Assembly (NCBI RefSeq): GCF_014230055.1 | Contig: NZ_JACHVA010000123.1 | Span: 1 to 43,715 of the forward strand | DNA length: 43,715 nt | DNA from: Puniceicoccus vermicola | GTDB lineage: Bacteria > Verrucomicrobiota > Verrucomicrobiia > Opitutales > Puniceicoccaceae | Direction of reading: 5' to 3' | Part shown: positions 24,880-43,715 of the stretch, piece by piece | Layout: each line of letters begins with the position of its first letter | How positions within the stretch are numbered: position 1 is the stretch's first letter | The notes under the pieces: model-generated | What the model was told of the DNA's origin: nothing | Database searches by the model: none | What the model saw: only the letters and a program-made list of their open reading frames with translations | Made by a program: the position numbers and the translations under genes

Positions 24880-26842
24880 TTCACTGGAGTTGACGAATAA
24901 CTACGAATTTTCTAACGGCATAATTCGGCTTAGAGTTTTTGAAAGTGACGAGGGTTATCCTCTCGTAACGATTGAGGGCGAAAATCGAGTGCAGTATGGC
25001 CCTGTTCCTTTGGTGGGGTTCGACACCCATGTCATCTTCTGTCAACGGGTAGAACGTGCGTGCCAGCCGATCCAGGTGCGTCGTTGCACTCGGATTCGAG
25101 ATGGCTTTCATTTCGAGCTTCACGATCAGTGGAGTCAGATTACCGCAGGGATTGTGCTACAGCTGGTGGGAGACCGGTTGGTTGCGACGTTCAAAACTTC
25201 GGAGCTGTATGAGCGCGAGAATGAATCTTACCGTCTCTTTAATGTGACTCTTCTGCCCGGCCTGATGCGCGTGGGCCGCGAGGGCCAGATCATTCTCCCG
25301 CTGGGGACGGGTCTCTCGATTTCTCCGGAAAAAGCCCCCGCTATGTCGGATCGGTTTTTGATTTATGGGGAGCAGCCACGTTGGGAATTGCTGCCGATGC
25401 TTCCGGTTACTTCGACAGGGGAGAATGGAAATGGTATCGTCTCGATGGCGACTCAATGCCCTGAAGATGCCAGCGTCCGATTTTGGACCGACGGTCGAGG
25501 CAACGGTGGCGTCGATATGGGTGCCTCGTTGCGTGAACACTGGATTGATCCGGTCGATCGTATGGATCGCAGTGTTGAATTCGTGCCAACAACTTTTGAA
25601 ACGGATCAACTCCATACAACCGCTCACACATTACGTCGGCATATCGTTGAAGATCTAAAAGTTAAGCCGGTCAGCGAGCAGATCAAAGAATCCGAAGCCG
25701 TTGATAAGTTGGTGCGGTCTGTCACTGGAAAGATGTTTTTTGGTGTTCTGGATCAAGGCACAGGAGGGGCAAGGTTGGGAGATCCCACTCATGGCGAATA
25801 CATCAGTAACACCACTTGCCAGGAGGCTATCGAGATCTTTCAGAAGATCAAAGCTGCTGGTGTCGATGGTTATAATAGCCAGAGCGTTGGTTACATCCCC
25901 AATGGTCATGATGGCTCCTATCCCAGTCACGATCGTTTTGATTCACGAATCGGTGGACGGGAAGGTTTTCTGGAAATGGTTGAAGAGGGCAAGAAGCTGG
26001 GCTTCACCATTAATGTCCATGACAACTACAATGAGGGGTATGAATCCTCGCCGGACTTCGATTGGAAATGGTGCTTCCACGATGTCTATTGCATGCCGCA
26101 AAAACGCGGCGCTTGGGGAGGTGGACAGGCCTATTTGTTCAATATGAAGCATCTGCCCGAGGAGATGGTGGAAGGGGCTTTGGGACGTATGAAAGGACTC
26201 GGATTGACGGGGGTCGGTTACGTGGACGCCTTGGGGAATCCTCTCTATCGGAACTATGATCCTGATCGGGGAGGACCTCGTCGAGATCATGCACAGGGAA
26301 TCGAACGCGTGCTTAAGGCGTCCGCCGACACGTACGGGGGAACTACAACCGAGTGCGGATTTCTTTATGCGGCGCGGCATTGTGTTGCGGTTTGTATGCC
26401 GGGTAATCACCGGCATATAGGGAGTGCAGTTCATCAGGCACTGCCGGTTGAGTTAAAACCGATTCCCCTGTACGCGCTATCGGTCTCGGGACTGATTCTT
26501 GTGTATAAGAAATTTGATCAGAGCAAATCTGATGTGATCGATATGTTGCTGATGGGACAGCTGCCCCACCATGGGGATACGGTGGCCCGGGATCAGGTCC
26601 AGGGTGGTCATCGGCACAAACCATTCAACGATGCTTTGGCGAAAAACATGAAGGTCGTCTATGACCTCGTCTGTGTGAAATATCGACATCTCAAAGAGCA
26701 ACAAATTCTGAGGTGGCAGTTGAATGATGATGGCTCTGAGGAAACGACTTTTGCCGATGGCACCGTGGTAAAGGCAGACCTCAGTCGAGAAACCCTTTTC
26801 ATCAACGGTGAAGAGATTTCGTTTTCTCTTTCCAAAACTTAA
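24869..26842 (+). CDS. Unclassified TIM-barrel-like protein, probable glycoside hydrolase
   Basis: The product has 657 residues and no signal peptide. Residues ~1-270 form a beta-sandwich like those preceding the barrel in many glycosidases. From ~290 an alternating beta/alpha pattern appears: KIKAAGVDGYN, FTINVHDNYNEGYE (Asp385), GVGYVDALGN (Asp453) and TTTECGF (Glu495). These lie at predicted strand ends, where catalytic acids sit in TIM-barrel hydrolases. I do not recognise the family with certainty; GH101-like or DUF5696-like proteins are the nearest impressions. Its start overlaps the previous gene by 11 bp, suggesting translational coupling (ATGATG at 24869). A cytoplasmic role on imported oligosaccharides fits. 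Confidence 0.8.
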   Translation: MMNSSLELTNNYEFSNGIIRLRVFESDEGYPLVTIEGENRVQYGPVPLVGFDTHVIFCQRVERACQPIQVRRCTRIRDGFHFELHDQWSQITAGIVLQLVGDRLVATFKTSELYERENESYRLFNVTLLPGLMRVGREGQIILPLGTGLSISPEKAPAMSDRFLIYGEQPRWELLPMLPVTSTGENGNGIVSMATQCPEDASVRFWTDGRGNGGVDMGASLREHWIDPVDRMDRSVEFVPTTFETDQLHTTAHTLRRHIVEDLKVKPVSEQIKESEAVDKLVRSVTGKMFFGVLDQGTGGARLGDPTHGEYISNTTCQEAIEIFQKIKAAGVDGYNSQSVGYIPNGHDGSYPSHDRFDSRIGGREGFLEMVEEGKKLGFTINVHDNYNEGYESSPDFDWKWCFHDVYCMPQKRGAWGGGQAYLFNMKHLPEEMVEGALGRMKGLGLTGVGYVDALGNPLYRNYDPDRGGPRRDHAQGIERVLKASADTYGGTTTECGFLYAARHCVAVCMPGNHRHIGSAVHQALPVELKPIPLYALSVSGLILVYKKFDQSKSDVIDMLLMGQLPHHGDTVARDQVQGGHRHKPFNDALAKNMKVVYDLVCVKYRHLKEQQILRWQLNDDGSEETTFADGTVVKADLSRETLFINGEEISFSLSKT

Positions 26843-26868
26843 ATCAAACAAAATTAGAAAATCGTTTT

Positions 26869-29800
26869 ATGAAGACCTACAAACTAATTTTAGCTTTAAA
26901 AATTGCTATCCTTGGAGGAAGTGTATTCGCCAATTCTTCGGCTGTAAAAAACGGTTTACAACCCGAACAAGTGGCATCTTTCGCTATTCCAAAAATGAGC
27001 CAAAGTCCCACGGTTGACGGCGTCATCGATCCCGAAGAATGGAAAGAGGCTGTGGAGATCGGCGGTGCTGTTGACCAAAGTACTGACCTGATCATCCCTC
27101 GCCCGGGTAGCTTCTATCTGGCCTGGGATCCTGAGCATATCTATATGGCGTTTCGTACCTACATTCGCGAGGGCTACAAACCTGAAATTGCGGCGGGTCG
27201 AAGTCAGGGGCAGGCATATATTTGGGATGAGGGAATGGAGCTCGGCTTTCAGCCATTGGGAATGAATCGGGCACCAGGAAATGCCGGCACCTCGTACAAG
27301 TTTTTCCTAAACGCTCTCGGGTTTTACGGGGATACCGCCCGTGTCGCACTCGGACAGCAGTCTAAAAGTTGGTCGCCGAAATTTGAGTCGAACGCGCGAA
27401 TTACCGAACCGGGCACGGCGCCTAATGGAGGTAGTTGGCTTGAGGTCGAGTTTTCCGGATCCATTGAAGATTTTGAGCTGATTGGACCCAACCAAGCCGG
27501 GGATCGATGGAATCTTATGCTCGGGATCAATCACTTTCCCAAGTGGATGCAGGCGAGAATTCCTGCTGTCGGAGCCTATTTGAATCCAGACGGATATTCT
27601 CAAGGAATCCTCGTTGAGAATACCCCGGTTGCCAAGATGTCGATGGATAGCCTCGCTAATCTCGCGTCAGATGGAACGGCCAGCATGAAAGTCGAGATCT
27701 ACAATCCCACTACTGAGCCTATTGATGCCAGGGTTGATGTAGAGGTCGGAAAATCCATCTCCAGGAAAGAAGTATTGACGGTTGCTCCTGGTGCCTCTGC
27801 GTCTTTCGAGTTGAATGAGAAGCTTCCTGAGGAAGAGGAAAGTGGATCTGTGAACTTGGAGGTATCGTATGAAGGTGGATCCCTCATGACCTACAATGCA
27901 TTTTTTGAAGTAGGAAAATATGAACGGATGTTACGACCAGTCGCCCCGCGCGACCCAACGAAGTTTTCATTTGATGGACGTTTTAATCCAGATCGATCGT
28001 GGCTGCATGTAAAAGCCGATGCATACTATCTTCCGGATCCCGATCAAGCGGATTCACTTGAGTTTACCGTCATTAAAGACGGGAGTTCGGAGCCGGTCTA
28101 TCGTGGCACTCTGGAAGAAATGGCGAACTGGTATTTTCAGGATATTGTCGAATTGCCGGAACTTGAAGTAGGAGATTATCGTATCGAGGGCGAACTGGTT
28201 CTTAAAGATGGTACTACACTGGGGCCTGTTGTAACCAAGTTTGAGAAAAAGGATGAAGCGAAAGAATTTGCCCGTTGGTGGGGTAAAACCTACGGAGATA
28301 TTGAGCGGGTACTTCCTCCCTACACCGAGATTGAAAAAGGGAAGGTTGATGATTCTTCTGTGACCTATAGTCCGCTTGGCCGAAAATACTCCCTTAACGC
28401 CCTCGGTCTTCCAACGGCACTTGATTCGGCTGGGGGAAGTGTCTTGTCCGCGCCGGCGAGAGTTGTAGTCGTTGCAGACGGGGAAGAGATTTCAATTCCG
28501 ATTGGGGCTCCTGAGATTTCTGTTGAGAAAGACTGGAAGATCGAGTTCACCGGTTCTGCTCAGGGAGCGGGCCTCGATTTTGAAGCTAAGGGGTGGTTGG
28601 AACAGGATGGTTTGGTCTATGTGGACCTCACTTATCAGCCTCGCGATGGAAAGTCCGTTATGATTGACAGCATGCGGATTGAATATCCCTTGTCCGAGAA
28701 AGATGCTGACGGTCTCCTATGCGTCGGACCTGGCGAGAATTATTCCAGTCGTTCGACGATTCTCTTAGATAATGAGAAGGAAGGTTCTCTTTGGTCTACC
28801 CACGATACCGGGGTTTCGGGATCGCAGATGACGGTTGGAAGTTTTTATCCTACCGTCTGGATCGGAAGCGAACGCCGGGGGTTTCTTTGGTGGGCCGATA
28901 ACGACAAGGGCTGGGTGCAAGCCAATGATGTTCCCGCTCATGAAGTCGTCCGTCAAGATGGCGACGTGGTGCTGATCAATCATATAGTAGGGCGACCGAT
29001 TGAACTGAATGAACCCAAGACGATTGCCTTCAGCTATCTTGCTACCCCCTTCAGACCTTTGGTTCAAGGGTTTCGAACAACTCAATCGACTGAGGATGGA
29101 ACATTCTTTGGACCGTTCCGCGGGGTGCGCGATGATTCAAAAACGGGAGAGCCTGTTTTTGTGCATCGTGGAGGCCTCGGCCACGTTAACTGGATACATC
29201 CCGAATCGCGCTATCCGGAAGAATGGGATCAGTTGTGGGAGCAGCAGCGCACGGTTGGAATTCCCGGCACGCGTTACATGGCTGCGGAAGAGTATGCGAG
29301 GGAATGGCAGTGGCGTGACCCGTATAAGGCCCGAGCCGGAACGAACCTGACCCACATGTCTTTTCAGATTATGGGATATGGACGGAAGAGCTTGGAAAAC
29401 GAAACTTACGAGTACTTTGGTGCGGCATGGGAGGGATCGCTCGATACCTGGAACGACTCTTACATTGATTATGCCATGAGCCTATTCGATTCGGCTTTTA
29501 AAAAGGGAGGTGTGTTGTCGACGTATTGGGATCTTGCCTTTCCGATCCTGTTTGAGGATCCCCTGAGCGGCCTTAGTTACTTTCTGCCCGATGGTCGGGT
29601 ACAGAAGGGATATAACGGATGGAACATCCGTCGTTTCATGATGCGCCTTCACGCCCTGCAGTATGATTCCGGATTGGTCCCCGGAGCCAATGGTCTCCAT
29701 TCCAGTAACGCCTATTTGACGGTGGCGATGCCTTGGGCCGATGCGGTCCTCGACGGAGAACGCAACTGGGAACTCGATACGACAGACCTTGACTGGATTG

Positions 29801-30879
29801 ATGTCATGCCCATCGAGCGTATGCGTTCGATGTCGGTGTCGGCGAATTGGGGTGTGAGTATTTGTTGGATGGCCAATATGTTTTCGCGGGATCCGGGCAA
29901 GATCGTAGAAAATAAGCGGATTCAGGGGCAATGGGTCTGGATGCATGACTCATGGTTGAATCCCTACATCCCGCAGCTTGGCAGTATGCCTGAGCAAGTG
30001 CTGGATTTTGGAGTGAACGATAGAGACACTGTTTATCATCCATACTGGCGGAACCATCTCGCGAGTAGTTCTAACGAGGATATTTTAGTCTCGGTGTGGG
30101 AGATGGAAGGACGAGTCATGCTTGGAATCCTAAATTATGATAAGAATCATCCGCAATCAGCTGACATCGAAATCGATTTCGAGGAACTCGGTCTAGAGCC
30201 TAATCAGGTGGTGAGCACTCGGCTTTGGTCGGATGAAATGGGGTGGGAACGTCGGGACCAGAACCGCATGCGCAGTTTAGAGCGCGACTATGAGAAGGCT
30301 CTCGCAAAGGCGGAGAAGAGAGGAGGACCAGTTCCTGCTAAGCCAGACATGGAGCCTAGAGAATATCCGCTGTCGATAGCATCAACCGAATTGGAGGGCG
30401 ATACTCTCAAAGTTCGGGACCTGGCCGGGCATCGTTTGATTCTTGTCGGACTTTCTGCGCCAGAGCCAGCGAGTGTTGAACGTGCGAAGAGCTCCCTTCC
30501 TGAATGGGCGAAGGAGGACCTTATTGTAAAGTTGAATAATGATGGCTTTGTCGATGCACGCACCCAATATCTTGCGGACGATTTGCCGGGTATCAGTGGT
30601 GAAGATGCGGAGGTGACAGTTACCATGTGGCAATTACCAGATCGTATCTTGCTTACCGTTTTTAACAATGGGGAGCGTCCGAAGGATGTAGACCTTGGCG
30701 TAGATCTGGATGCGTTGAACCTGGTTCCTGAACTGCCATGGCAGGAGTTTGTGGGTATTCGACAGATACAGGCCGAGGAGGGTGCACCTCAACCGGATCT
30801 AGACTTTTACGGTCGCTCGCTTTCGCTCAGGAAACTCAGTCCTGATGCCGGTCGAGTCGTCAGTATTCGAAGGTTCTGA
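26869..30879 (+). CDS. Giant secreted CBM9/DOMON-GH123-like protein (paralogue 2)
   Basis: The product has 1336 residues. A signal peptide covers ~1-22 (LILALKIAILGGSVFA). A CBM9/DOMON-like domain follows (VDGVIDPEEWKEA at ~48-60, FYLAWDPEHIYMAFR). The rest parallels paralogue 1: VGRPIELNEPKTIAFSYLATPFRP aligns with VARPFAFDHERTVRFSLQATPIKP of the first, and STYWDLAFP (Asp888) aligns with its YFDLTEP region. The Glu three residues after the Asp in paralogue 1 is Phe here, so substrate or mechanism may differ. The C-terminal ~200 residues form a further beta domain (SVWEMEGRVMLGILNYD). It is preceded by 26 bp after the previous stop, within the operon. Confidence 0.84.
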   Translation: MKTYKLILALKIAILGGSVFANSSAVKNGLQPEQVASFAIPKMSQSPTVDGVIDPEEWKEAVEIGGAVDQSTDLIIPRPGSFYLAWDPEHIYMAFRTYIREGYKPEIAAGRSQGQAYIWDEGMELGFQPLGMNRAPGNAGTSYKFFLNALGFYGDTARVALGQQSKSWSPKFESNARITEPGTAPNGGSWLEVEFSGSIEDFELIGPNQAGDRWNLMLGINHFPKWMQARIPAVGAYLNPDGYSQGILVENTPVAKMSMDSLANLASDGTASMKVEIYNPTTEPIDARVDVEVGKSISRKEVLTVAPGASASFELNEKLPEEEESGSVNLEVSYEGGSLMTYNAFFEVGKYERMLRPVAPRDPTKFSFDGRFNPDRSWLHVKADAYYLPDPDQADSLEFTVIKDGSSEPVYRGTLEEMANWYFQDIVELPELEVGDYRIEGELVLKDGTTLGPVVTKFEKKDEAKEFARWWGKTYGDIERVLPPYTEIEKGKVDDSSVTYSPLGRKYSLNALGLPTALDSAGGSVLSAPARVVVVADGEEISIPIGAPEISVEKDWKIEFTGSAQGAGLDFEAKGWLEQDGLVYVDLTYQPRDGKSVMIDSMRIEYPLSEKDADGLLCVGPGENYSSRSTILLDNEKEGSLWSTHDTGVSGSQMTVGSFYPTVWIGSERRGFLWWADNDKGWVQANDVPAHEVVRQDGDVVLINHIVGRPIELNEPKTIAFSYLATPFRPLVQGFRTTQSTEDGTFFGPFRGVRDDSKTGEPVFVHRGGLGHVNWIHPESRYPEEWDQLWEQQRTVGIPGTRYMAAEEYAREWQWRDPYKARAGTNLTHMSFQIMGYGRKSLENETYEYFGAAWEGSLDTWNDSYIDYAMSLFDSAFKKGGVLSTYWDLAFPILFEDPLSGLSYFLPDGRVQKGYNGWNIRRFMMRLHALQYDSGLVPGANGLHSSNAYLTVAMPWADAVLDGERNWELDTTDLDWIDVMPIERMRSMSVSANWGVSICWMANMFSRDPGKIVENKRIQGQWVWMHDSWLNPYIPQLGSMPEQVLDFGVNDRDTVYHPYWRNHLASSSNEDILVSVWEMEGRVMLGILNYDKNHPQSADIEIDFEELGLEPNQVVSTRLWSDEMGWERRDQNRMRSLERDYEKALAKAEKRGGPVPAKPDMEPREYPLSIASTELEGDTLKVRDLAGHRLILVGLSAPEPASVERAKSSLPEWAKEDLIVKLNNDGFVDARTQYLADDLPGISGEDAEVTVTMWQLPDRILLTVFNNGERPKDVDLGVDLDALNLVPELPWQEFVGIRQIQAEEGAPQPDLDFYGRSLSLRKLSPDAGRVVSIRRF

Positions 30880-30900
30880 TTGCTGTTGGAGGATGCTGAA

Positions 30901-32817
30901 ATGAATATTCGCGTTCATGATATCTTTGGAGATGGCATGGTCCTTCAGCGTGGCATAAATGTGCCGATATGGGGAACTGCCACAGAATCTCTCACCGGGA
31001 AGAGGCTGACTGTTTCGATCAATGGAGTCGAGGATACGGTTCGCATTAAGAAGGATGGCGCGTGGCGTGCGACGCTACCCCCCTTGGCGGCCGGTGGACC
31101 TTACACCTGCTCGATAACTGTTGGGGAGAGAAGTAAGCCGGAGTGCATTCTAAAAGATGTTCTTGTCGGAGATGTTTGGGTTGCATCGGGCCAATCCAAT
31201 ATGGAGTTTCCATTGCGTGACTCTGAAGATGCTGGCGCTAATATAGCGCTTGCGGAATATCCCAATCTCCGGCTTTACAAGGTTCCTCCCTTAGCTCAAC
31301 GAGCGACTAGAGTGAATCTGCGATCGGAGTGGAGAAAATGCACTCCGCGGGATGCGGCAGATTTCTCGGCTGTCGGCTATTTCTTCGGTCGTGAGCTTCA
31401 TCGCTCAGTGGGAGTGCCGATCGGCATCATTCAATCTGCTTGGGGCGGGACTCCTGCGGAGGCCTGGACTAGTGAGGATGCGTTAAAGAGTGATCCCGGG
31501 TTCGCTGAGGTCGTCGCTGACTATGAGAGGGAGTTAGCGAATCCTTCCAAGAGTAAACACGATGAGGAAGTGCGGCAATGGACTGAACGCTACGATCCGC
31601 CCGACCCCGGAAACAAAGGACTGGAAAAAGGTTGGCACCTTCCTCAGACCGATATCGACAAATGGGAGAGTATGAGTCTCCCGGGTTATTGGAGATCACA
31701 GGGGCATAATTACAGTGGTGTATTCTGGTTCTGCATGGACGTAAGCATCCCGGACAGTTGGCTGGGGTCAGATGCCACTCTGAACCTGGGTCTTGTCGAT
31801 AAGTCGGATGTTTCCTATTTTAACGGTGAACAGGTTGGCAGCATTACGATGGAAGAGCGAGCTGACGCTTGGTGTACTCCTCGCAGTTACAAGGTGCCCA
31901 AACAGATCCTCAAGGCGGGGACAAACCGTATCGCGGTGCGTGTGCGTAGCAATTTCGCCGCCGGTGGTATTTGGGGGGAACCCCAAGACCTCTCGCTCGT
32001 AAGCTGTAGTGGTGATCGTTCTCATAGAATCCCGCTTGCCGGTAGTTGGCAATTTCAGGTGGAAGCCAATTATGGAATCGTTCCTCCCCGACCGGAAGGT
32101 CCCTTGGGGGATGGCAATCGCCACTCGCCCCATATTCTTTTCGACAGTATGATAAAACCTCTGATTCCCTACGCGATCAAAGGCGTTATCTGGTATCAGG
32201 GGGAGAGCAATACCATTCGTGTTCACGAATATAGTCGTCTTTTCGCTTTGATGATTCATTCGTGGCGAAATGCGTGGAAGCTGGGAGATTTCCCTTTTTA
32301 TTTCGTTCAATTGGCGAACTATATTGCGAATGAGCAATGGGCTGAACTACGTGAAGCCCAGGCGCAAGTTCTCGCTGTGGCAAATACCGGCATGGCAACG
32401 GCAATCGATGTCGGTGATCCGGAAGACCTTCATCCTAAAAATAAAAAGGATGTGGGGAAACGTTTGGCTCGTCACGCCTTGGCGAATGAGTATGGCTTTA
32501 AGGAACTGGTGACCACTGGACCGGTGGCGCGAATCGCTACCTTGAATTCTTCCAGACTGACGGTTCAGTTTGATTCCTGTGGTGGAGGACTAAAAGCGCA
32601 GGGAAAACTTGCCGGGTTTGAGGTTTCGGTCAACGGAAAGGTTTGGCATGAGGAAGGTGCGAAACTGGATGGTGATGTCGTGGTCGTCCAATGCGTCAAG
32701 CTGAAGAATCCGAAATGGGTTCGCTACGCTTGGTGTGATAGTCCAACGTGCTCCCTTTACAACGCATCGGACCTTCCCGCTCCTCCCTTTAAACTTCTCG
32801 TTCGTAACTTGAATTAG
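30901..32817 (+). CDS. Sialate O-acetylesterase-type carbohydrate esterase (SASA domain, split by a jelly-roll)
   Basis: From the ATG at 30901 the product has 638 residues. A GGAGG at 30888-30892 lies 8 bp before it, which favours this start over the upstream TTG. The catalytic Ser is in SGQSNME (codon at 31195). A second block WYQGESNT follows, and DVGDPEDLHPKNKKDVGKRL carries the Asp/His pair. Between them (~residues 245-390) is a galactose-binding, GH2-like jelly roll (GYWRSQGHNYSGVFWF), the usual insertion in this family. These enzymes remove O-acetyl groups from sugars. There is no signal peptide, so it is probably cytoplasmic. Its last codons reappear, slightly changed, ~1.09 kb downstream in a direct repeat. 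Confidence 0.92.
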   Translation: MNIRVHDIFGDGMVLQRGINVPIWGTATESLTGKRLTVSINGVEDTVRIKKDGAWRATLPPLAAGGPYTCSITVGERSKPECILKDVLVGDVWVASGQSNMEFPLRDSEDAGANIALAEYPNLRLYKVPPLAQRATRVNLRSEWRKCTPRDAADFSAVGYFFGRELHRSVGVPIGIIQSAWGGTPAEAWTSEDALKSDPGFAEVVADYERELANPSKSKHDEEVRQWTERYDPPDPGNKGLEKGWHLPQTDIDKWESMSLPGYWRSQGHNYSGVFWFCMDVSIPDSWLGSDATLNLGLVDKSDVSYFNGEQVGSITMEERADAWCTPRSYKVPKQILKAGTNRIAVRVRSNFAAGGIWGEPQDLSLVSCSGDRSHRIPLAGSWQFQVEANYGIVPPRPEGPLGDGNRHSPHILFDSMIKPLIPYAIKGVIWYQGESNTIRVHEYSRLFALMIHSWRNAWKLGDFPFYFVQLANYIANEQWAELREAQAQVLAVANTGMATAIDVGDPEDLHPKNKKDVGKRLARHALANEYGFKELVTTGPVARIATLNSSRLTVQFDSCGGGLKAQGKLAGFEVSVNGKVWHEEGAKLDGDVVVVQCVKLKNPKWVRYAWCDSPTCSLYNASDLPAPPFKLLVRNLN

Positions 32818-32858
32818 AACGCATGAAAACCCTCGTGAGAACTGGGTTCGCTCCGTTT
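32771..32858 (+). repeat. 88-bp imperfect direct repeat, copy A
   Basis: This segment covers the last codons and stop of the SIAE gene plus a start-like ATGAAAACCCTCGTGAGAAC. It matches 33858-33945 at about 77 of 88 positions without gaps. The MKTLVRT start belongs functionally to the GH65-like gene downstream, so this copy is a duplicated operon junction. Confidence 0.88.
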
Positions 32859-32927
32859 ACGCCGGATGTGCGATCCATTAGAAAATTTCTCCTCCTCTTT
32901 GAAAAACAACTTACGCAATCTCGTCGA

Positions 32928-33656
32928 ATGAAGTCTGTCCTACTCTTCGTCCTCTTTTTCATGACATCTCTCAACGCCCAGGATTTGGAAAAGCATTTAT
33001 TCATCCTCTCGGGACAATCCAATATGGCGAGACTGAATCCGAAGCTCACTTTCACCCCGACCGTCGAAGCGGCTTTCGGAAAAGAGAATGTCGTCGTCGT
33101 AAAAGACGCGATGGGTGGACGGCCCATCCGGCTATGGTACAAAGACTGGAAGCCCAGAGAAGGAGACGAGCCGAAGGCGACCGGGGAACTCTACGACCGG
33201 TTGATGAAGAAAGTGAATGCCGCTGCCAAGGGGCAGGAGTTTGAGACCGTGACCTTTATCTGGATGCAGGGGGAACGGGATGCCAGCGAGGGACATGGGG
33301 AAGTCTACGCCGAGAGCCTGAACGGTCTCATCCACCAGCTCTCGGAAGATCTTGGGCGCGACGATCTCTATTTCGTCATCGGGCGCCTCAGCGATTTCGA
33401 TATGATGAACGTGAAATATCCCCACTGGACTATGGTCCGTGAAGCACAAGTACAACTCGCCGAAGCCAGCCCCCGAGGAACGTGGGTGGATACCGATGAC
33501 CTGAACGATGGAATCGATCGAAAGGGAAATGTCCTGGAAAACGATCTCCACTATTCACCAGAGGGATATAAAATTCTCGGCACACGCTTCGCCGAAGAGT
33601 CGATTGCATTGATCAGTGGATCCAATTCGGTAGGATCGGCTGAGAATGGAATGTAA
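32928..33656 (+). CDS. Secreted SASA-domain acetylesterase
   Basis: From the ATG at 32928 the product has 242 residues. I chose this start because it begins with a clear signal peptide (MKSVLLFVLFFMTSLNAQ). The frame is open upstream to 32823, but those codons are the leftover start of a duplicated gene junction. The catalytic Ser is in LSGQSNMAR, WMQGERDA is the second block, and DLHYSPEGYKILG carries the catalytic His. The family deacetylates carbohydrates; unlike the 638-residue SIAE it has no jelly-roll insertion and is exported. It lies between the two 88-bp repeats and appears to be inserted into the operon. Confidence 0.88.
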   Translation: MKSVLLFVLFFMTSLNAQDLEKHLFILSGQSNMARLNPKLTFTPTVEAAFGKENVVVVKDAMGGRPIRLWYKDWKPREGDEPKATGELYDRLMKKVNAAAKGQEFETVTFIWMQGERDASEGHGEVYAESLNGLIHQLSEDLGRDDLYFVIGRLSDFDMMNVKYPHWTMVREAQVQLAEASPRGTWVDTDDLNDGIDRKGNVLENDLHYSPEGYKILGTRFAEESIALISGSNSVGSAENGM

Positions 33657-33857
33657 AATCTCATAGTCTCTATTTTAAAAATTATGAAGGATATCCCGTA
33701 AGTATCTGGTTGATATGAGCTCTCTGAAAAGCGTTAACATTCACATAGATCGTTTCAGGAGAGACTGGCATTCGGCGGGGAAAGACACAGCGTGTTCCCG
33801 TCCCTTTGTAATGTCGATGAATAGGGGGATAGAGCCTTGAGGATCGAATTGGGGTGA

Positions 33858-33945
33858 ACCTTCCCGCTCCTCCTTTTAAACTTCCCGTTAAGAAATTGAA
33901 TTAGAACGTATGAAAACTCTCGTGAGAACTGAGTTCGACCCGTTT
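33858..33945 (+). repeat. 88-bp imperfect direct repeat, copy B
   Basis: This copy contains an SIAE-like C-terminal tail (LPAPPFKLPVKKLN and stop) that is not attached to a gene, followed by the true start of the GH65-like gene (MKTLVRTEFDPF at 33910). It pairs with 32771-32858. The ~200 bp between the SASA esterase stop (33656) and this copy hold no gene I recognise. Confidence 0.88.
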
Positions 33946-35973
33946 CTGCGGCCTGCATACCTTGCCAATGGTCTCGTGGGCCTACGCGTTGGACAGATCC
34001 CGTTGATCGCCGGGAGTGCTCTCGTAAATGGATATATCGGCAAAGATTGCTCAGGTGAGAGTGATACCGTCTCCGCGGCGCCTTATCCGGTGGGTGCGGA
34101 TATCGCCATCAACGGGCGATATCTTTCGGAGCGGACCGCTGCGGCGAACTTTATCGCCCAGGCGTATGACCTGAATTGTGGTGAATTGAGGTCGACTTTC
34201 GAGTATGCCTTTGAGTCGGTCGTCGCGACGGTGAAGGTTCTGACATTCTGCAATCGGACGATGCCGACGATCGTCCAGCAGCAGGTTCGTGTGTCGGTCA
34301 ATGAACCCTGTAAACTCGTCCTGCAGGCGCAGCTCGATCCACGAGGGTTGCCGGGCAAGTTACTGGACTGGCTCCGGCCCGCAAAGAGGGTTGACGGACT
34401 GTTACAGTGGGAATCTCCAGGAGGGTATAGTCGTATTGGTGCAGGTTACCATGCCACTTGTCACTGCGATGGCGAGTATCTCGACGCGATAAGAAATAAC
34501 TTCGGACATGAGCGCGATCTTCAGCTTACGCGTTTTGTGATCGATGGGGAGCCGGGAAGGGAATATTCCATGCAGCAAATCGGGGTTTTGGTGCCCAGTT
34601 TGATGCACAACGAGCCCCATCTACAGGCCATGCGCCAATTGCAAATGGCCAAGTGGTTTGAATTTGAAAAGTTACGTCAGCGTAACGCCAGTGCCTGGAG
34701 CGAGTTGTGGAAGAGCCGGATTCGCCTGGTCGGCGCAGAAGAGAAATATCAGGACCTGCTCGATAGTTCTTTCTTCTACATGCACAGCTCAGTGAATCAG
34801 GCAACACCCAGTAGTGTAGCTCCCTTTGGGCTATCACAAGACGGGTATTCCGGGCATGTCTTCTGGGATGCGGAGACGTTCATGTTTCCGGGGGTTCTGT
34901 TGACAGCACCGAGTGCGGCAAAAGCGATGATGGAATATCGTGTCCGCTGTGCACCTCAAGCTCGAATGAACGCGAAGCTTAATGGCTATGAAGGTCTGCA
35001 GTTCCCTTGGCAGAGTAGTAATGACGGTTATGAAGTAACCAGCTATTATACCGAAGGGAACGCTGAGTTGCACATCAATGTGGATATCGCTTTTGCGATG
35101 ATTCAGTATGTCAATGCGACGGGCGATGACGTTTTCTTCAAGGAACACGCGTGGCCGATAGTCAAAGGGGTTGCCGACTGGGTTGTCTCCCGTGCGGACG
35201 AGACGGATCGGGGCTACGAGATTCAGCATGTCGTGGGTATTGATGAAAGCTGTGTTAACGTGAATAATAATTGTACGCTCAATTGCGTATCAAAGATTGT
35301 GTTGCAGCAGGCGGGAGAGTGGGCTCGAAAACTGGAGTTGGTTCCGACCGAGAAGTGGGCTGAAGTCGCAGAGAAGTTATTTGTTCCGATCGATTCGGAA
35401 GAAAAATGGATTATGCCCCACGAGGGTTATGTCTATGATCCACAGAAAAAGGCAGCCCACGGAAATTTTCATGAAGGTATTTACTCGATTGAGGCCATGA
35501 TGCTTGATTTTCCTTTTGGATATCACCACAGCCCCGAGGTGGATGAGGCGACCAAGAGGCACTATATGAAGTATTTGCACACCTATATGGGGATGCCCAT
35601 GGCGGCTGCGAATGCGGTGGTTTGGGCTGCCCGCGAGGGGGAGCCTGAATTGGCAAAAGAGTTTTTGGACACCGGATATCTGTCGAGGCATTTTGAGCCG
35701 TTCAACATGATTGGCGAAACGGCCAAGTTTCGCGAAGGCAGCCCCAATGAAAATTTTGTCACGGCTCAGGGAGGGATCCTTTCGGCCGTTATTCTAGGAT
35801 TATGCGGTCTGGATATTGTCGAAGGTTCTCCCGAAGGCTGGGCCAAGCATCCGATTCGTCTTCCCGGAGACTGGGAGGCCATTGAGATTGATCGACTCTA
35901 TGCACGGGGCCGCCCCTTTAGGGTCGTCGCCAGAAATGGTGCGGAAAAAGCGGAGATTTCCTTCATAGACTGA
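33910..35973 (+). CDS. GH65-like glycoside hydrolase or phosphorylase
   Basis: The product has 687 residues. An N-terminal beta-sandwich (residues ~1-270, starting LANGLVGLRVGQIPL) is followed by an (alpha/alpha)6 barrel: GYSGHVFWDAETFMFP is the GH65 signature, GYEGLQFPWQS and YYTEGNAELHINVDIA follow, and VVGIDESCVNVNNN holds the likely general acid Glu446. GH65 contains acid trehalases, alpha-glucosidases and phosphorylases of alpha-glucobioses and related sugars. I cannot tell hydrolase from phosphorylase by eye. There is no signal peptide, so it likely acts on imported alpha-linked oligosaccharides. It follows the inserted SASA gene in the operon. Confidence 0.88.
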   Translation: MKTLVRTEFDPFLRPAYLANGLVGLRVGQIPLIAGSALVNGYIGKDCSGESDTVSAAPYPVGADIAINGRYLSERTAAANFIAQAYDLNCGELRSTFEYAFESVVATVKVLTFCNRTMPTIVQQQVRVSVNEPCKLVLQAQLDPRGLPGKLLDWLRPAKRVDGLLQWESPGGYSRIGAGYHATCHCDGEYLDAIRNNFGHERDLQLTRFVIDGEPGREYSMQQIGVLVPSLMHNEPHLQAMRQLQMAKWFEFEKLRQRNASAWSELWKSRIRLVGAEEKYQDLLDSSFFYMHSSVNQATPSSVAPFGLSQDGYSGHVFWDAETFMFPGVLLTAPSAAKAMMEYRVRCAPQARMNAKLNGYEGLQFPWQSSNDGYEVTSYYTEGNAELHINVDIAFAMIQYVNATGDDVFFKEHAWPIVKGVADWVVSRADETDRGYEIQHVVGIDESCVNVNNNCTLNCVSKIVLQQAGEWARKLELVPTEKWAEVAEKLFVPIDSEEKWIMPHEGYVYDPQKKAAHGNFHEGIYSIEAMMLDFPFGYHHSPEVDEATKRHYMKYLHTYMGMPMAAANAVVWAAREGEPELAKEFLDTGYLSRHFEPFNMIGETAKFREGSPNENFVTAQGGILSAVILGLCGLDIVEGSPEGWAKHPIRLPGDWEAIEIDRLYARGRPFRVVARNGAEKAEISFID

Positions 35974-36093
35974 CTGACGGTAGGAGAGGAGAAAAACGTC
36001 TTCTTTGTTGAACATGAATTTCCAATTTCGCTAGGCGCTTGAGAGAAATGGACCTTTTGTTTGGAGGCTAGATCGACCAAAGTGCTTGATTTC

Positions 36094-36777
36094 ATGGGAA
36101 CAGAACCATCTCAATACACGGTGCTACCCGTTCAGCGGTCTACCGGGCTCCTCGGTGACTGGGCAGGGCCGATTTGGTCCGCTGCAGAATCGGTTGAGAT
36201 CGCACACTTTTACGATAGGCCTCAAGCAACCGAGCATCGTCCGAAGACAGAGGCGAAGCTGCTTTACAGCGCTCAGGGGGTGTATCTTCATTTTCGAGTG
36301 GCGGATCGGTTCGTTCGCGCGGTCGAGCAGGGATATCACAGTTCGGTCTGTGGTGACAGCTGTGTGGAGTGGTTTGTGGAGCCTGTGGCTGGGGCAGGTT
36401 ATTTTAATTTGGAGATCAACGCAGGGGGGACGATGTTGCTCTACCATATTACGGGTCGGGCGCAGAACAGGGTTATGACGCCAGTTCCAGGCGAATGGAT
36501 GGACCAAATCTTGGTGCAGCATTCTCTTCCATCGACGGTCGAACCAGAGCTTGTAGGTGAAATCATCTGGACAATAGAGGCTTTCGTTCCTTTTGATCTG
36601 TTCCGCGCGATGCTTCCGGGACGGACGGTCTCCCCATCGGTTCAAGGGTGGCGTTGTAATTTTTATAAATGCGGCGATAAGACCTCTCATCCGCATTGGG
36701 CGAGCTGGCAGCCGGTTGGCGAGGCTCCTTTCACTTTTCATCAGCCAAACCGTTTTGCGCCAATCATCTTTGCTTAA
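36094..36777 (+). CDS. CBM9/DOMON-like carbohydrate-binding protein
   Basis: From the ATG at 36094 the product has 227 residues; a TTG at 36061 with an overlapping GGAGG would add 11. The sequence has the family-9-like pattern: GPIWSAAESVEI near the start, AKLLYSAQGVYLHFRVAD, GDSCVEWFVEP, YFNLEINAGGTMLLY and WRCNFYKCGD near the end. These proteins bind sugars through aromatic residues. It has no catalytic domain and no signal peptide, so it is a stand-alone module whose role in the operon is unclear, perhaps binding oligosaccharides in the cytoplasm. It lies 120 bp after the GH65-like gene. Confidence 0.8.
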   Translation: MGTEPSQYTVLPVQRSTGLLGDWAGPIWSAAESVEIAHFYDRPQATEHRPKTEAKLLYSAQGVYLHFRVADRFVRAVEQGYHSSVCGDSCVEWFVEPVAGAGYFNLEINAGGTMLLYHITGRAQNRVMTPVPGEWMDQILVQHSLPSTVEPELVGEIIWTIEAFVPFDLFRAMLPGRTVSPSVQGWRCNFYKCGDKTSHPHWASWQPVGEAPFTFHQPNRFAPIIFA

Positions 36778-36811
36778 ATGAGGGAGGGAAAAATCACACG
36801 AGATATTCAGT

Positions 36812-37768
36812 ATGAAGAACCTTGATTTGAGATCGGATGTAAACTGGATTAATGCCGCAGAACTCGAGGAAAAGCCGGAAGGCATGCTTCCCTTGCGATT
36901 TTCTCGGGCACTGATCGAGAGCTTTGACAATCCTTCAAAGCGAGCTGTCGCAGCTATGCAGACCTCCCTGGTCTGCGAGTTGCCTTTGGGGGTTCGAAAG
37001 GCCGAGTTTGTAGTGAATCTGCTTGATTCGGACGGATATGGTTTTGTTGGGGAGTGCTATATAGGGCCCTTCAAGCATCTGCCGAATATTCTATTTACGA
37101 AAGTAGGAGAAACCTATCGGTTCGAAGTAGAGATCCCGGCCTGGATCGAGAACGAAACGATCCGTTTCCATTTTCCAACCCATTGCACGCTGGCGATCCA
37201 GTCGATTCACGTCGAGGGAGAGAAATTCTCTCTTCCGGCTCTTTCGAGAAAGAAGCGCTGGGTGGTGCATGGAGACTCGATTACACAGGGGGCAAATTGC
37301 TCAACTCCGAGCTTGGCCTGGCCTGACATGGTTGCCCGCGAGTTAGACTGGGACGCGGTCAATCTGGGAATCGGCGGGTTCGGTGTGTTCGATCCACGGG
37401 TGGCGGAGTATGTGGGCAGTCTGCCCAGAGATTTTGTCAGTATCCACTGTGGGGCCAATTTGAATGGAAAGGAAGATCATCGGAAGAGGATCCGGCAGTT
37501 CCTGTCCATCGTGTTGGCCAATGGTTTTTCCGCGCCGTGTGTGGTGGTCACCCCCATCGTTTGCTTGACGCGTCCAGTGCAGCCAATTCGTGATCAGATT
37601 CGTGAGGTCGTGGAGAGTTTCGGTATTCCGAATCTTCGGTGTGTCGACGGATTGTCGGTCGTCGATCAGCTAAGTGCATTGAACAGCGACGGCTTGCATC
37701 TCAACGACTGGGGAGAGATTTCGTATTATCGATCAATCGTTCGAAAATTTAGAGAATGGAGCATTTAA
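36812..37768 (+). CDS. SGNH hydrolase with N-terminal beta domain (CE2-like layout)
   Basis: The product has 318 residues. Residues ~1-140 form a beta-sandwich and ~145-318 the SGNH fold: VHGDSITQGA (nucleophile Ser), NLGIGGFGVFD (block II), SIHCGANLN (block III) and DGLHLNDWGE (Asp/His block). The combination resembles carbohydrate esterases of the CE2 type. There is no signal peptide. It is preceded by a 34-bp gap and followed by a 4-bp gap in the operon. It probably deacetylates an imported sugar. Confidence 0.87.
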   Translation: MKNLDLRSDVNWINAAELEEKPEGMLPLRFSRALIESFDNPSKRAVAAMQTSLVCELPLGVRKAEFVVNLLDSDGYGFVGECYIGPFKHLPNILFTKVGETYRFEVEIPAWIENETIRFHFPTHCTLAIQSIHVEGEKFSLPALSRKKRWVVHGDSITQGANCSTPSLAWPDMVARELDWDAVNLGIGGFGVFDPRVAEYVGSLPRDFVSIHCGANLNGKEDHRKRIRQFLSIVLANGFSAPCVVVTPIVCLTRPVQPIRDQIREVVESFGIPNLRCVDGLSVVDQLSALNSDGLHLNDWGEISYYRSIVRKFREWSI

Positions 37769-37772
37769 TTGG

Positions 37773-38657
37773 ATGAGTACTTTAGAGAACCCGGGATCGC
37801 TACGACGAGTTGCGCTGTGTTTGGCCGTTATTTTTGGCGGCCTTGTTTCGCCTGCTGGGGCTGAAGTTGAGGGTGAGAAAATACAGCCCAATGAAGAGCA
37901 AAAGCTTCTCATTAATAGCATGCGGCGAGGGGTTCAGCCCGCTGATGAGCCGGTTGCTTTCTTGGACCTGGACCTTGGGGTGGTCGGGAGGCCTAATCCT
38001 CATTTCGGTGAAATTTCCGAAAAATTTCTTCGTAAGCATGAGGAACGGATGAACCGCAAAAAGGAGTCTGTCGACTTGGTCTTTCTGGGAGATTCGATCA
38101 CGGCGGGATGGACCGGGGCCGGGATCCGCACATGGAATGAATATTTTCTACAATACGATCCCGTCAATTTGGGGATCGGCGGCGAGAGGACCCAGCATGT
38201 GCTTTGGCACATCGAAAATGGGTTTTTGGACGAAATCGATCCCTGCGTCGTTGTTTTAATGATCGGGACGAATAATCTGTCCCACCATTCCAATCAGGAG
38301 ATTGCGGCGGGGATTACCCGGATTGTCGATGTCATCCACGAAAAACTTCCGAAGGCCGAGGTGCTTCTTCTAGGAATCTTTCCGCGGGGAGGAGATCCCT
38401 CCGAAAAGAGGGTTCGTGAAATTCGGGAACGAATTCGCAAGATCAATGAAACGATCTCCAAGCTCGATGACGGCGAGAAAACGAGATATCTGGATCTTTC
38501 TGCGAACTTCTTGGATGAGAGCGGACAGCTGTCGCGCGAGATTGTGCCGGATGGGCTCCATCCGAACGGGAATGGCTACCGGGTATGGGGACAGGGAATG
38601 GCTTCCGTGATCGACGAAATGATGGATTGCGATGTAAAAACTTCGGATCGCAACTAA
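37773..38657 (+). CDS. Secreted GDSL-type esterase (PAF-acetylhydrolase-like)
   Basis: The product has 294 residues. A signal peptide covers ~1-30 (RRVALCLAVIFGGLVSPAGA). The catalytic blocks are LGDSITAGW, NLGIGGERTQHVLW, LMIGTNNLS and DGLHPNGNGY. The pattern is closest to PAF-acetylhydrolase-like GDSL enzymes, which act on acetyl esters. It is the last gene of the operon and converges with the GntR-LacI regulator gene, with 47 bp between stop codons. Confidence 0.9.
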   Translation: MSTLENPGSLRRVALCLAVIFGGLVSPAGAEVEGEKIQPNEEQKLLINSMRRGVQPADEPVAFLDLDLGVVGRPNPHFGEISEKFLRKHEERMNRKKESVDLVFLGDSITAGWTGAGIRTWNEYFLQYDPVNLGIGGERTQHVLWHIENGFLDEIDPCVVVLMIGTNNLSHHSNQEIAAGITRIVDVIHEKLPKAEVLLLGIFPRGGDPSEKRVREIRERIRKINETISKLDDGEKTRYLDLSANFLDESGQLSREIVPDGLHPNGNGYRVWGQGMASVIDEMMDCDVKTSDRN

Positions 38658-38704
38658 TGTCCTCGGTTTGGATCCGGGGGTATCGGTCTGAGTCGCTCAC
38701 GCAC

Positions 38705-39850
38705 TCATTTTTTAGAGTGGTTCCTGATGACGAGTTTCGGCTTTATGAGGATAGGGTCGTTGGCTGGTGTTCGACCTTCGCTCACCTGATCAATGATCGA
38801 GATTGCTTTATTGACGATTGTTTCGAAATTGAAATCGATGGAGCTGAAGGATGCATTGCCCGCTTTACTCCATTCGGTGTTTCCGTAGCCGACAACCTCT
38901 AGGTTTGCAGCTTGAGCAGGTTTTCGGTGCAACAGTATATTCTGTGCCAGCCAAGCTTCGTAGTCGCGTAACCCGAAAATGGCAGTTGGTCCCGCTTTTG
39001 CCTTTAACTGTTTGAGGAAGGCCTTTTCGTCTAGCTCATGGTGGTGGAGGATGTTTGTCGAATGGCTTGCCAGTTTTGTCCATTCTCCTCCCATCGACTC
39101 CCATTTGTGACGGAAGTGGCAAGCTGGGTATCCTTGGTCTGGCCTGTCGGATTCGATCTGAGCGATCTGAGTGTCCGTCCCGACAAGCATTACTTTGCGG
39201 TGTCCCTGAGCCCAGAGATGTTTGGCGACCATATCTCCTCCGGCTTCTACGTCGTGAAGCACCCGATAAAGTCCTGGCCATGTCGATTCGCTTACCCATG
39301 AGAAGACTGCAATCGTCGTCTTTTGCTTCATGCCTGGGAGGTCGAACACGCTGTAGGGGAAATGTCCGCTTCCTTGAACGACCATGATTTTAGATTCGGA
39401 ATATCCGATTCTTCGAATGACTTCACCTTGCCCGCTTCCCTTTTTGGGGTCGATCCCTACTAGACTTCCAATTTTGCCGTGCTCGGCCAAGGCTTCCATG
39501 AACATGGTTAGGAGGTTGCTCCACAAATGGTCCTTTGAGTGCATGCAAAGGGAAACCACGTCTGCCATGGTAAGGGATCGATGACGTGACGCGATATAGG
39601 TGCCTGAGCCGTTTCGGAGTTCCACATAGCCCTCATTTTCAAGACGTTGCAGGGCTTGGCTGATGGGGAATGTGCTTACATTCAGCATCGCTGCCAGTTT
39701 TCGATTGGATAGCAGCCGATCTCCGATTTCTCGTTCTGGAGAGGTTATGTAATTCTTAAGCTCTTCGTAGATTCTTCTGGCTTTACTTTCTCTTTCGCCC
39801 GTGAAGCTTTTTGTCGGAATCTGATTCGGGCGCTGCGCGCTTTTCTTCAT
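38705..39850 (-). CDS. GntR-LacI hybrid transcriptional regulator
   Basis: The product has 381 residues. Residues ~20-90 form a GntR winged helix (RRIYEELKNYITSPEREIGDRLLSNRKLAAMLNVSTFPISQALQRL, then ENEGYVELRNGSGTYIASR). Residues ~100-380 form a LacI-type periplasmic-binding-like sensor (HLWAQGHRKVMLVGTD, LKAKAGPTAIFGLRDYEAWLAQN, VVGYGNTEW). Such AraR-type hybrids are usually repressors released by a sugar. Its gene diverges from the prepilin-like gene, and an operator copy lies between them with a weaker one at 39965-39983. It is the most likely binder of the shared 19-bp element and controller of the 20455-38657 operon. Confidence 0.9.
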   Translation of the reverse strand: MKKSAQRPNQIPTKSFTGERESKARRIYEELKNYITSPEREIGDRLLSNRKLAAMLNVSTFPISQALQRLENEGYVELRNGSGTYIASRHRSLTMADVVSLCMHSKDHLWSNLLTMFMEALAEHGKIGSLVGIDPKKGSGQGEVIRRIGYSESKIMVVQGSGHFPYSVFDLPGMKQKTTIAVFSWVSESTWPGLYRVLHDVEAGGDMVAKHLWAQGHRKVMLVGTDTQIAQIESDRPDQGYPACHFRHKWESMGGEWTKLASHSTNILHHHELDEKAFLKQLKAKAGPTAIFGLRDYEAWLAQNILLHRKPAQAANLEVVGYGNTEWSKAGNASFSSIDFNFETIVNKAISIIDQVSEGRTPANDPILIKPKLVIRNHSKK

Positions 39851-40080: not shown

Positions 40081-40090
40081 TTTTCGGGTG

Positions 40091-43000: not shown

Positions 43001-43715
43001 GCCTCTTTGCCCAATCCCCGTTTTAAGCCCTACACTCCGGGCGATTCCCAATTCACTGCGGAGGTGCTCCAGGATGTTGGCGACGAGGAGTCCGGAAGCT
43101 TCTTTCACAACGCGGGTCATCTCATGGTTGAAGGGATGTTCAATGTGAACTCGACCTCGGTCGATGCGTGGGAAGCTTTTCTTTCCGGCACGCACAAACT
43201 GCCGGTCCAGAAGCTCACCGAGAATGGTCAGATCGCCGATTTTTGGTCTTCAAGCGAAATCGAGGGAGTGCGGTTCCCCCGGGTGCAGATGGTAATGGAT
43301 AATACCAGCCCGGAGAGTCCGGCAGGGGAGGGGAACGATAGTTTCTGGATCGGCTTCCGCACGCTGAAGCAGGAAGAGGTGCGGCGCTTGGCCGAAGAGA
43401 TCGTCGTGGAAGTCCGCAAGCGGGGTCCATTTCTGAGCTTGGGCGACTTCGTCAATCGGAAGTTGGAGGACGGCGAGCTGGGAGAGGCGGGTGCGCTACA
43501 GGCGGCGATTGATCGGACGATCAACATCAGCATAGACGGGGATATCGCTGAGGAGGCCACGAATCCCTCCGTCCCCGGGCAAATGTCGCAGGCCGCCGGT
43601 TTTCCCGGCTATCTGCAGCAAGGAGATATCCTGCAGGCGCTGTCCCCGTATATGACGGTGCGCTCGGACACGTTCACGGTAAGAGTCTACGGTGATAGGG
43701 TGTCGCCCGTGACCG
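40091..43715 (+). CDS. Very large prepilin-like 'Verru_Chthon cassette A'-type protein, 3' end outside window
   Basis: An uninterrupted frame runs from the ATG at 40091 to the window end, more than 1208 codons. Residues ~17-41 are a hydrophobic helix after a short polar start (MGFALLVSLSLLSFLLLVTV), like type IV prepilin N-termini, followed by ARQNALFGLSVAFGELQ and LGPDTRVNART, features I recall from the large verrucomicrobial Verru_Chthon cassette A/PilX-type proteins. Later parts (GYDRVILFDVPRVDLVSLGQLQHAN; FWIGFRTLKQEEVRRLAEEIV; SDTFTVRVYGD) fit the same group. M17 at 40139 is an alternative start. The function is unknown; a surface or pseudopilus-like role is a guess. It may be controlled by operator copy 4. 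Confidence 0.82.
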   Translation, partial: MTEGVSPQSQIDWDHKMGFALLVSLSLLSFLLLVTVALSAFLRVETQGAESSRNLTLARQNALFGLSVAFGELQCSLGPDTRVNARTLLIARDERIAISDSDLPAAKSPKAWWVGVVDSDGESSFQRSAGETPVAWLVSGLKNNDSNALTDSDPFQESGAIPLFDDGSIDLALLSDGKPIEGGRVPIRGADSESDFGSYAWIVDDEGLKAQLALRDPLDGGLVEPLGGGVLPGAFDLAILEGMDGLSGILPEDMSLLVALAQLSALGADQDVALDKRFDYTTQSLGVLADVRNGGLKRDLTIAFERDEVFDEVFDPFAGGRPKLTPAALTGDPRRQRVLMDREKLSTSDDLLRGGYIHWGVFNDYYNLKRFIMNLEEPATGEKVASLDPTLFNASGFTDAGHPSFPNHKFYGGALGPHDMAAEPGEYHPEHPYGDFLVAASDYGNEVTYFRGEGGFSVGDPSARAELPRRSNEYRHSPITPVLSLLQVNSWLEKRRDNPVNPENDDLLSKVQVWSSLYNPYNIGVDMTANYVTPAGPSDLRKPVRGPFLMNYPGVQMNYGGALTDYLERTYFIEDPAGDMSFFASFKALDNAGNIGFYTLSAHVEGSVLLQPGRSHVMTRMEDISVAGSPRFSGFTDEVADPTLYGIKSPIDDISTDSEVFEASVVWENPAFLHGLDFHSKPVLGVRNRNGEVVNRLVPDSAQVMFAPFAWDRVLWTYANEDLSKKSEDGKRVLKIKKGAVPRPGKKLKTIAPVPPSRNVVLSAEMRLRTTKEPGESVPLLAAANVRAMWCNPRWDYGISSSTDSPILAAYSIENEGETYEPRVQMKPGNNGRGYSYWGAGNGPADGYDRVILFDVPRVDLVSLGQLQHANAGRFSYEPSYIVGNSYPNPRIKPLDQWRASVTDQFSGFDTGLDEDENWGISGSFNLYDASYLVNEHLWDSFIFTTIPQVADNYGETGIEPSFEELLSGEASLPNPRFKPYTPGDSQFTAEVLQDVGDEESGSFFHNAGHLMVEGMFNVNSTSVDAWEAFLSGTHKLPVQKLTENGQIADFWSSSEIEGVRFPRVQMVMDNTSPESPAGEGNDSFWIGFRTLKQEEVRRLAEEIVVEVRKRGPFLSLGDFVNRKLEDGELGEAGALQAAIDRTINISIDGDIAEEATNPSVPGQMSQAAGFPGYLQQGDILQALSPYMTVRSDTFTVRVYGDRVSPVT

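What the first reader, a model, noticed from the sequence alone, without database searches (positions are those of the whole stretch)
32771..33945. 88-bp direct repeat flanks a probable inserted esterase gene
The junction between the SIAE stop and the GH65 start exists twice (32771-32858 and 33858-33945, ~87% identical). The first copy leaves a dangling MKTLVRT start; the second leaves a dangling SIAE-like tail (LPAPPFKLPVKKLN). The secreted SASA esterase lies between. This suggests a new gene was added to the operon with duplication of the junction, either by recombination between homologous operons or by tandem duplication followed by replacement. The divergence of the copies means the event is not recent.
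Basis: seen in the sequence. Interest (0 to 1): 0.62.

Follow-up and report, generated by a model that had tools for sequence, protein, structure and literature searches.

The report
Esterase gene inserted with duplicated junction
An esterase gene, still attached to a scrap of a mobile element, appears to have been pasted between two enzyme genes together with an 88-letter duplication of the gene boundary that left both neighbours whole; it is a tidy example of an already described kind of gene insertion.

Summary
The SIAE-stop/GH65-start junction occurs twice (32771-32858 and 33858-33945; 77/88 identical, no gaps) and was found nowhere else in the held 5.2-Mb genome. So the insert is esterase plus IS scrap. 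Intact copies of that IS seem to make 9-bp target duplications (2 inferred pairs), and the insert has no terminal inverted repeats, so the 88 bp are not this IS's ordinary footprint. The IS scrap joins the orphan SIAE tail at a 6/7 microhomology (chance about 0.01).

Best reading: one illegitimate insertion with a long target duplication, a pattern described for restriction-modification genes ("in the order of 100 bp"). The duplication left SIAE and GH65 whole. The empty site could not be tested: no GH65 locus examined has SIAE directly before it. Duplication-then-replacement stays possible; its gene-order-swap version found no support. New member of a known kind; modest interest.

The parts
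30880..32817 (+). SIAE-type sialate O-acetylesterase gene (645 aa), intact; its last 47 bp (14 codons, stop and 2 nt) lie in repeat copy 1
   Evidence: Pfam SASA 1.2e-19 and BetaGal_ABD2; its C-terminal region lines up with the ends of the 19 homologues looked at
32771..32858 (+). Repeat copy 1: SIAE tail + GH65 start (first 12 codons). Its GH65 half departs from the family: Gly at residue 8, where the window GH65 and the 4 relatives looked at have Glu/Asp
32823..33656 (+). ORF opened by the duplicated GH65 start codon and running in frame through the esterase (277 aa)
32928..33656 (+). SASA-family (PF03629) esterase core with its own signal-peptide-like N-terminus (by eye)
   Evidence: Pfam 5.9e-27; relatives at up to 64% in the same order
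32859..33857 (+). Inserted segment, 999 bp (5' flank of esterase, esterase, IS remnant); no inverted repeats at its ends
33677..33743 (+). IS remnant, piece 1 (matches IS positions 54-118)
   Evidence: 82% over 67 nt, E 1e-10, 10 genomic copies
33738..33855 (+). IS remnant, piece 2 (matches IS positions 600-718); about 480 bp between the pieces and the last about 580 bp of the IS are missing
   Evidence: 89% over 114 nt, E 9e-34; 105/120 columns
33856..33862 (+). IS/SIAE-tail join at short similarity (IS GGATCTT, SIAE GGACCTT, 6/7)
   Evidence: chance about 0.01
33858..33945 (+). Repeat copy 2: orphan SIAE tail (33858-33904) + true GH65 start
33910..35973 (+). GH65-family glycosidase gene (687 aa); its start lies in copy 2
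   Evidence: Pfam PF03632 1.7e-45
32712..32731 (+). 20 bp inside SIAE that match the last 20 bp of copy 1 at 17/20 (copy 2: 14/20)
   Evidence: unexplained

Best explanation
A 999-bp fragment carrying a secreted SASA-family esterase gene and a broken piece of an IS4-family element was joined into the SIAE-GH65 boundary in one illegitimate event that also copied 88 bp of the target, i.e. [quoted passage not shown] Likely mechanics (inferred): either the target broke with widely staggered ends, a loose fragment was joined in and the 88-nt single strands were filled in; or a replication fork left the template just inside GH65, copied the esterase-IS fragment, and re-entered 88 bp upstream at the IS/SIAE short similarity. 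Shown: the duplication, the sharp edges, the IS scrap cut in mid-gene and fused to the SIAE tail, no inverted ends. Inferred: the 9-bp TSD of the intact IS (from contig-end flanks), that it was one event, and that the copies were identical at birth. Consequence: because the duplicated stretch spans stop and start, SIAE keeps its tail from copy 1 and GH65 keeps its start from copy 2. A gene was added inside a co-directional cluster without breaking either neighbour, and the duplicated GH65 start codon opens an in-frame ORF into the esterase.
For: 77/88 ungapped repeat, found only here; IS scrap at the right end of the insert, cut inside the transposase region and abutting copy 2; 6/7 similarity at that join, about 0.01 by chance; IS own TSD 9 bp in two matched flank pairs, so 88 bp is not its footprint; no terminal inverted repeats; of 23 loci with esterase relatives, 0 have a GH65 and 14 have a sulfatase within the roughly 1.5-kb flanks, so its place next to GH65 is unusual. 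[quoted passage not shown] also PMC1643837, PMC3031569, PMC3154945, passages); an IS between two copies of a duplication, without TSD, seen in the laboratory (PMC11708052, abstract and sections 8 and 10).
Against: No empty site and no donor locus were found, so direction (insertion against deletion) and number of events are inferred. Only one of the two joins shows short similarity; the left join cannot be judged because the donor is unknown. The IS remnant is also internally deleted, so at least one further event occurred, before or after. The 12% divergence could be original rather than accumulated. 12 of 23 esterase relatives do have a SIAE right beside them, so the esterase is not a stranger to SIAE genes, which leaves room for a shared history. 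The 17/20 match of the end of copy 1 to SIAE 32712-32731 (0 of 300 codon shuffles reach it; noticed after the fact) is not predicted by this model.
Confidence: 0.55

Rival explanations
1. Tandem duplication first, replacement later: a unit ending 12 codons into GH65 was duplicated (e.g. [SIAE-J] or [SASA-SIAE-J]); the second SIAE was then destroyed by IS insertion and deletions, leaving its last 14 codons. In the [SASA-SIAE-J] form (tandem duplication-random loss) the first SASA was also lost, turning SASA-SIAE-GH65 into SIAE-SASA-GH65.
For: Explains why an orphan SIAE tail abuts a decayed IS. A SIAE directly beside a SASA relative, downstream of it, is common in one other family of the order (12 of 23 loci).
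Against: Needs at least three events. The linked SIAEs used (six) are a separate clade of shorter proteins; holding the window SIAE with them is rejected (AU p 0.016; long branches, so not beyond doubt). No SIAE sequence is detectable in the 69 bp before the esterase.
Confidence: 0.27
2. Homologous recombination: a circle or homologous operon that already carried a diverged version of the junction beside SASA recombined into the junction, so the two copies differed from the start.
For: Would explain 12% divergence without great age.
Against: No second source of the junction in 51 other relatives, in the 181 other loci held (1.5 Mb) or, at DNA level, in 72,556 plasmid records; none of 19 SIAE homologue loci has GH65 or SASA in its flanks. 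Requires a prior unexplained duplication of the junction elsewhere.
Confidence: 0.1
3. A transposon with a very long target-site duplication (IS1634/IS1549 type, 8-514 bp) carried the gene.
For: Such long, variable duplications exist (PMC2266710 section 14), and IS1634 is a family split off from IS4 (passages).
Against: The intact IS matches the IS4 model (NF033592, 211 bits, cut-off 115) and not the IS1634 model (43 bits, cut-off 100) on its 281-aa transposase piece, and has apparent 9-bp TSDs. Insert ends have no inverted repeats and the scrap lacks both IS ends.
Confidence: 0.05
4. Assembly chimera between strains in a metagenome bin.
For: The genome is in 143 contigs and contigs end inside this IS.
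Against: Longest exact match between the copies is 16 nt and between the scrap and the IS 18 nt, shorter than usual assembly k-mers (k-mer sizes recalled, no call).
Confidence: 0.03

Closest known systems
Insertion with long target duplication (Nobusato et al. 2000; Furuta et al. 2010), Helicobacter pylori RM genes
   Same: A gene unit sits between direct repeats of about 100 bp that consist of target sequence.
   Different: Cargo is a metabolic esterase with an IS scrap, not a restriction-modification unit; the repeat spans a stop-start gene junction; no empty-site genome is available here. The two original papers were not read (Furuta not held; Nobusato not looked up), only citing passages.
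IS at the centre of a duplication (Pseudomonas fluorescens SBW25-Dup-IS, PMC11708052)
   Same: IS sequence between the two copies of a duplicated stretch, no ordinary TSD.
   Different: There the duplication is 60 kb and the IS complete; here 88 bp, and the IS is a fragment with an extra gene.
IS1634 / IS1549 long direct repeats
   Same: Long, variable-length direct repeats around an insert.
   Different: Element family and ends do not match.
Transposed genes with flanking repeats in Arabidopsis (PMC2869330)
   Same: Moved genes flanked by direct repeats over 30 bp, often matching the target site.
   Different: Eukaryote; circle-integration model drawn there (passages).

Membership tests
Insertion with long target duplication | Insert flanked by direct repeats of roughly 100 bp made of target sequence | tested here: met
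   88 bp, 77/88, consisting of SIAE tail + GH65 start
Insertion with long target duplication | Single-copy empty target in a related genome | tested here: inconclusive
   Junction DNA in none of 51 other relatives. GH65 matches at the cut-offs: itself alone in 52 relatives, 7 of 387 phylum and 3 of 372 order genomes incl. itself. Of the 8 other GH65 loci only 1 has a SIAE, downstream; of 80 genome-contig loci 2 have a SIAE, neither directly before GH65
Insertion with long target duplication | Insert lacks transposon ends (my criterion; some RM units in the literature do have imperfect inverted repeats, with short duplications) | tested here: met
   End-to-end inverted-repeat score 7, reached by 70% of shuffles
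Insertion with long target duplication | Cargo a restriction-modification unit (association in the literature, not a strict definition) | tested here: not met
   Cargo is a SASA esterase
Ordinary IS4-family transposition | TSD of 7-13 bp next to complete terminal inverted repeats | tested here: not met
   Scrap lacks both IS ends; intact copies have an inferred 9-bp TSD; family range from the PMC2266710 table
IS1634-type insertion | IS1634-family transposase and ends at the repeat borders | tested here: not met
   IS4 model far above cut-off, IS1634 model below; no inverted ends
Tandem duplication-random loss | Ancestral order SASA-SIAE-GH65 with orthologous SIAE | tested here: not met
   Six SASA-linked SIAEs are another clade, AU p 0.016; 0 of 23 SASA loci have GH65 in their flanks
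SASA carbohydrate esterase (PF03629) | Profile match above gathering score | tested here: met
   95.2 bits, cut-off 24.8
SASA carbohydrate esterase (PF03629) | Esterase activity | not testable with these tools
   GQSNM and DLHYS motifs seen by eye; motif meaning recalled

The most novel reading that the evidence does not exclude
The long target duplication is what made the insertion usable: by copying exactly the stop-start boundary it let an operon gain a gene in one step with both neighbours intact, and it handed the newcomer a ready translation start (the duplicated GH65 ATG runs in frame into the esterase). If common, this would be a general, selection-filtered route by which polysaccharide-degradation clusters grow in this group.
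Probability: 0.12. Interest if true: 0.55.

Novelty: new member of a known kind. Interest (0 to 1): 0.33.

Why it matters
This locus keeps the scar of a gene being added inside a gene cluster without breaking its neighbours: duplicated stop-start junction, added gene and truncated IS. It would extend insertion with long target duplication from restriction-modification genes to a carbohydrate-degradation gene in (by inference) Verrucomicrobiota, and it gives a searchable signature: an orphan head of gene B directly after gene A, and an orphan tail of gene A directly before gene B.

Tried and rejected
Empty-site test: GH65 searched in 52 relatives (E 1e-60), 387 phylum and 372 order genomes (E 1e-40); apart from itself the best is 36% identical. 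The eight other GH65 loci were checked for the window's genes: 1 of 8 (L019) has a SIAE, behind the GH65 with another gene between. None of 19 SIAE homologue loci has GH65 or SASA in its roughly 1.5-kb flanks. Copy 2 as DNA: no match in 51 other relatives.

IS long-TSD idea: dropped because the IS belongs to the IS4 family with an apparent 9-bp TSD.

Tandem duplication-random loss: looked attractive when 12 of 23 SASA relatives had a SIAE right beside them; dropped as the leading idea because those SIAEs fall in a different clade. L009 was left out of the 23 because it is cut at a contig end. Tree: of 32 candidate rows, the 9 whose best match was 500 residues or shorter were left out, among them the six linked SIAEs; brought those 9 back and used 13 of the 24 rows. 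The linked SIAE of L181 was in neither tree.

Composite-transposon idea (IS on both sides of the esterase): the 69 bp upstream match the IS only at score 15 (4 of 60 and 33 of 1000 shuffles as good); not convincing.

Codon and GC comparison: little information. Promoter/terminator scan: no promoter-like site (1.0 expected); 3 terminator-like sites against 1.7 expected, one of them across the IS/copy-2 join; not used. Plasmid searches: no DNA match; one 26% protein match.

Paper searches. None was a targeted search for the SIAE-GH65 case, so I do not claim that it is absent from print.

Full report
What is there. Copies 32771-32858 and 33858-33945 match at 77 of 88 positions without gaps. Each holds 2 nt, the last 14 codons and the stop of the SIAE gene, 5 nt, and the first 12 codons of the GH65 gene. 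Copy 1 completes a full SIAE (645 aa); copy 2 starts a full GH65 (687 aa). In the held 5.2-Mb genome the sequence was found only at these two places, and in none of 51 other relatives. In 10 other stretches (about 180 kb) no comparable junction repeat was found; 3 of 10 had a tandem array or 71-73% spaced repeats (those in L024 lie in sulfatase genes, those in L022 were not identified).

The insert. Between the copies lie 999 bp. An esterase of Pfam SASA (95 bits, cut-off 24.8) fills 32928-33656, and its frame is open back to the duplicated GH65 ATG at 32823. Behind it, 33677-33743 and 33738-33855 match two separate parts of a 1.3-kb element found in 10 near-identical copies in this genome (82% and 89%). 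The element encodes a DDE transposase of the IS4 family (NF033592, 211 bits, cut-off 115) with a DUF4372 N-terminal domain, split by an in-frame TAG. The scrap lacks the IS left end, about 480 bp of its middle and its last about 580 bp. Its cut end abuts the orphan SIAE tail at a 6-of-7 similarity that random pairs reach in 1% of trials.

Is the 88 bp a transposition footprint? Nine of the ten IS copies gave one readable flank at a contig end, five left and four right. Two left-right pairs share exactly 9 bp (ATACAAACT and GTAGGGTAT); the others found no partner, so 9 bp is the inferred TSD, within the 7-13 bp that PMC2266710 tabulates for IS4 subgroups (passage). Long variable repeats are known for IS1634 and IS1549 (section 14 of the same paper), but the IS1634 model scores below its cut-off, and the insert ends show no inverted repeats.

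Age and direction. The copies differ by 7 transitions and 4 transversions (K2P 0.138). Residue 8 of GH65 is acidic in the window GH65 and in the 4 distant relatives looked at, but Gly in copy 1, as expected if copy 1's GH65 half is the useless one. The IS scrap differs from the living IS by a similar amount (55/67 and 105/120 columns), but that includes any older difference between IS lineages, so the two clocks are only compatible.

Relatives. GH65: at E 1e-60, 1 of 52 relatives (itself); at 1e-40, 7 of 387 phylum genomes and 3 of 372 order genomes, itself included, none other above 36%. Of the 8 other GH65 loci so found, 1 has a SIAE, downstream of the GH65. In genome contigs the best is 42%, and none of the 80 loci kept has SIAE directly before GH65. 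The esterase is commoner: 29 of 372 order genomes at 1e-60, itself included, up to 64%. Of 23 loci examined, 14 have a sulfatase and 12 a separate SIAE within the roughly 1.5-kb flanks, none a GH65, none the IS. The linked SIAEs tested are a shorter, distinct clade. So the esterase is a frequent companion of sulfatases and of another kind of SIAE in this order; its place before a GH65 is unusual.

Interpretation. One illegitimate insertion of an esterase-IS fragment, with 88 bp of target copied, explains the repeat, the sharp edges, the truncated IS and the intact neighbours in a single step. This is the pattern named insertion with long target duplication (passages in PMC1643837, PMC3031569, PMC3874152 and PMC3154945; original papers not read). 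The discussion of PMC11708052 (section 10) sets restriction-modification genes at rearrangements in Helicobacter and Neisseria beside IS insertion at duplications, and proposes insertion into existing DNA breaks. Duplication followed by loss remains the main rival.

Left unexplained. The last 20 bp of copy 1 match SIAE 32712-32731 at 17/20, and the three bases in which copy 1 departs from copy 2 there all agree with that SIAE stretch; 0 of 300 codon-shuffled SIAE sequences match copy 1 as well. It was noticed after the fact; it could be a short conversion patch, a trace of the join, or chance.

Noticed in passing
L032:1-1295 and 9 other copies in the own genome: All 10 near-identical copies of the 1.3-kb IS4-family element match the query at 100% (4 over 1290 nt, 6 over 1234 nt), so they share an in-frame TAG that splits the transposase into about 110 and 281 residues; either the element is defective, uses readthrough, or the assembly reused one sequence.
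   Followed up: partly
G000 contigs C36/C38 and C16/C14: Matching 9-bp flanks suggest that these contig pairs are neighbours across an IS copy.
   Followed up: no
32712-32731 and 32839-32858: 17/20 match between an internal SIAE stretch and the end of repeat copy 1, better than that of copy 2 (14/20).
   Followed up: partly
40088-43714 (+): 1209-aa ORF running off the contig end, no Pfam or NCBIfam match at 1e-3, with an N-terminal hydrophobic stretch like pilin-type proteins (likeness by eye).
   Followed up: no
L005:2208-2777 (-), genome G035: Next to a SASA relative, a 189-aa ORF with a sulfatase N-terminus joined to what looks like a sulfatase C-terminus, as if the middle had been deleted in frame (judged by eye).
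   Followed up: no
L019:1863-2432, genome G227: Tandem array of a 168-bp unit, three copies.
   Followed up: no
7073-10054, 20455-39850: Window is a carbohydrate-degradation region: two sulfatases, GH123-N-like proteins, DUF5696/GH101-like, SIAE, SASA, GH65, CBM9, two GDSL esterases, GntR regulator.
   Followed up: no
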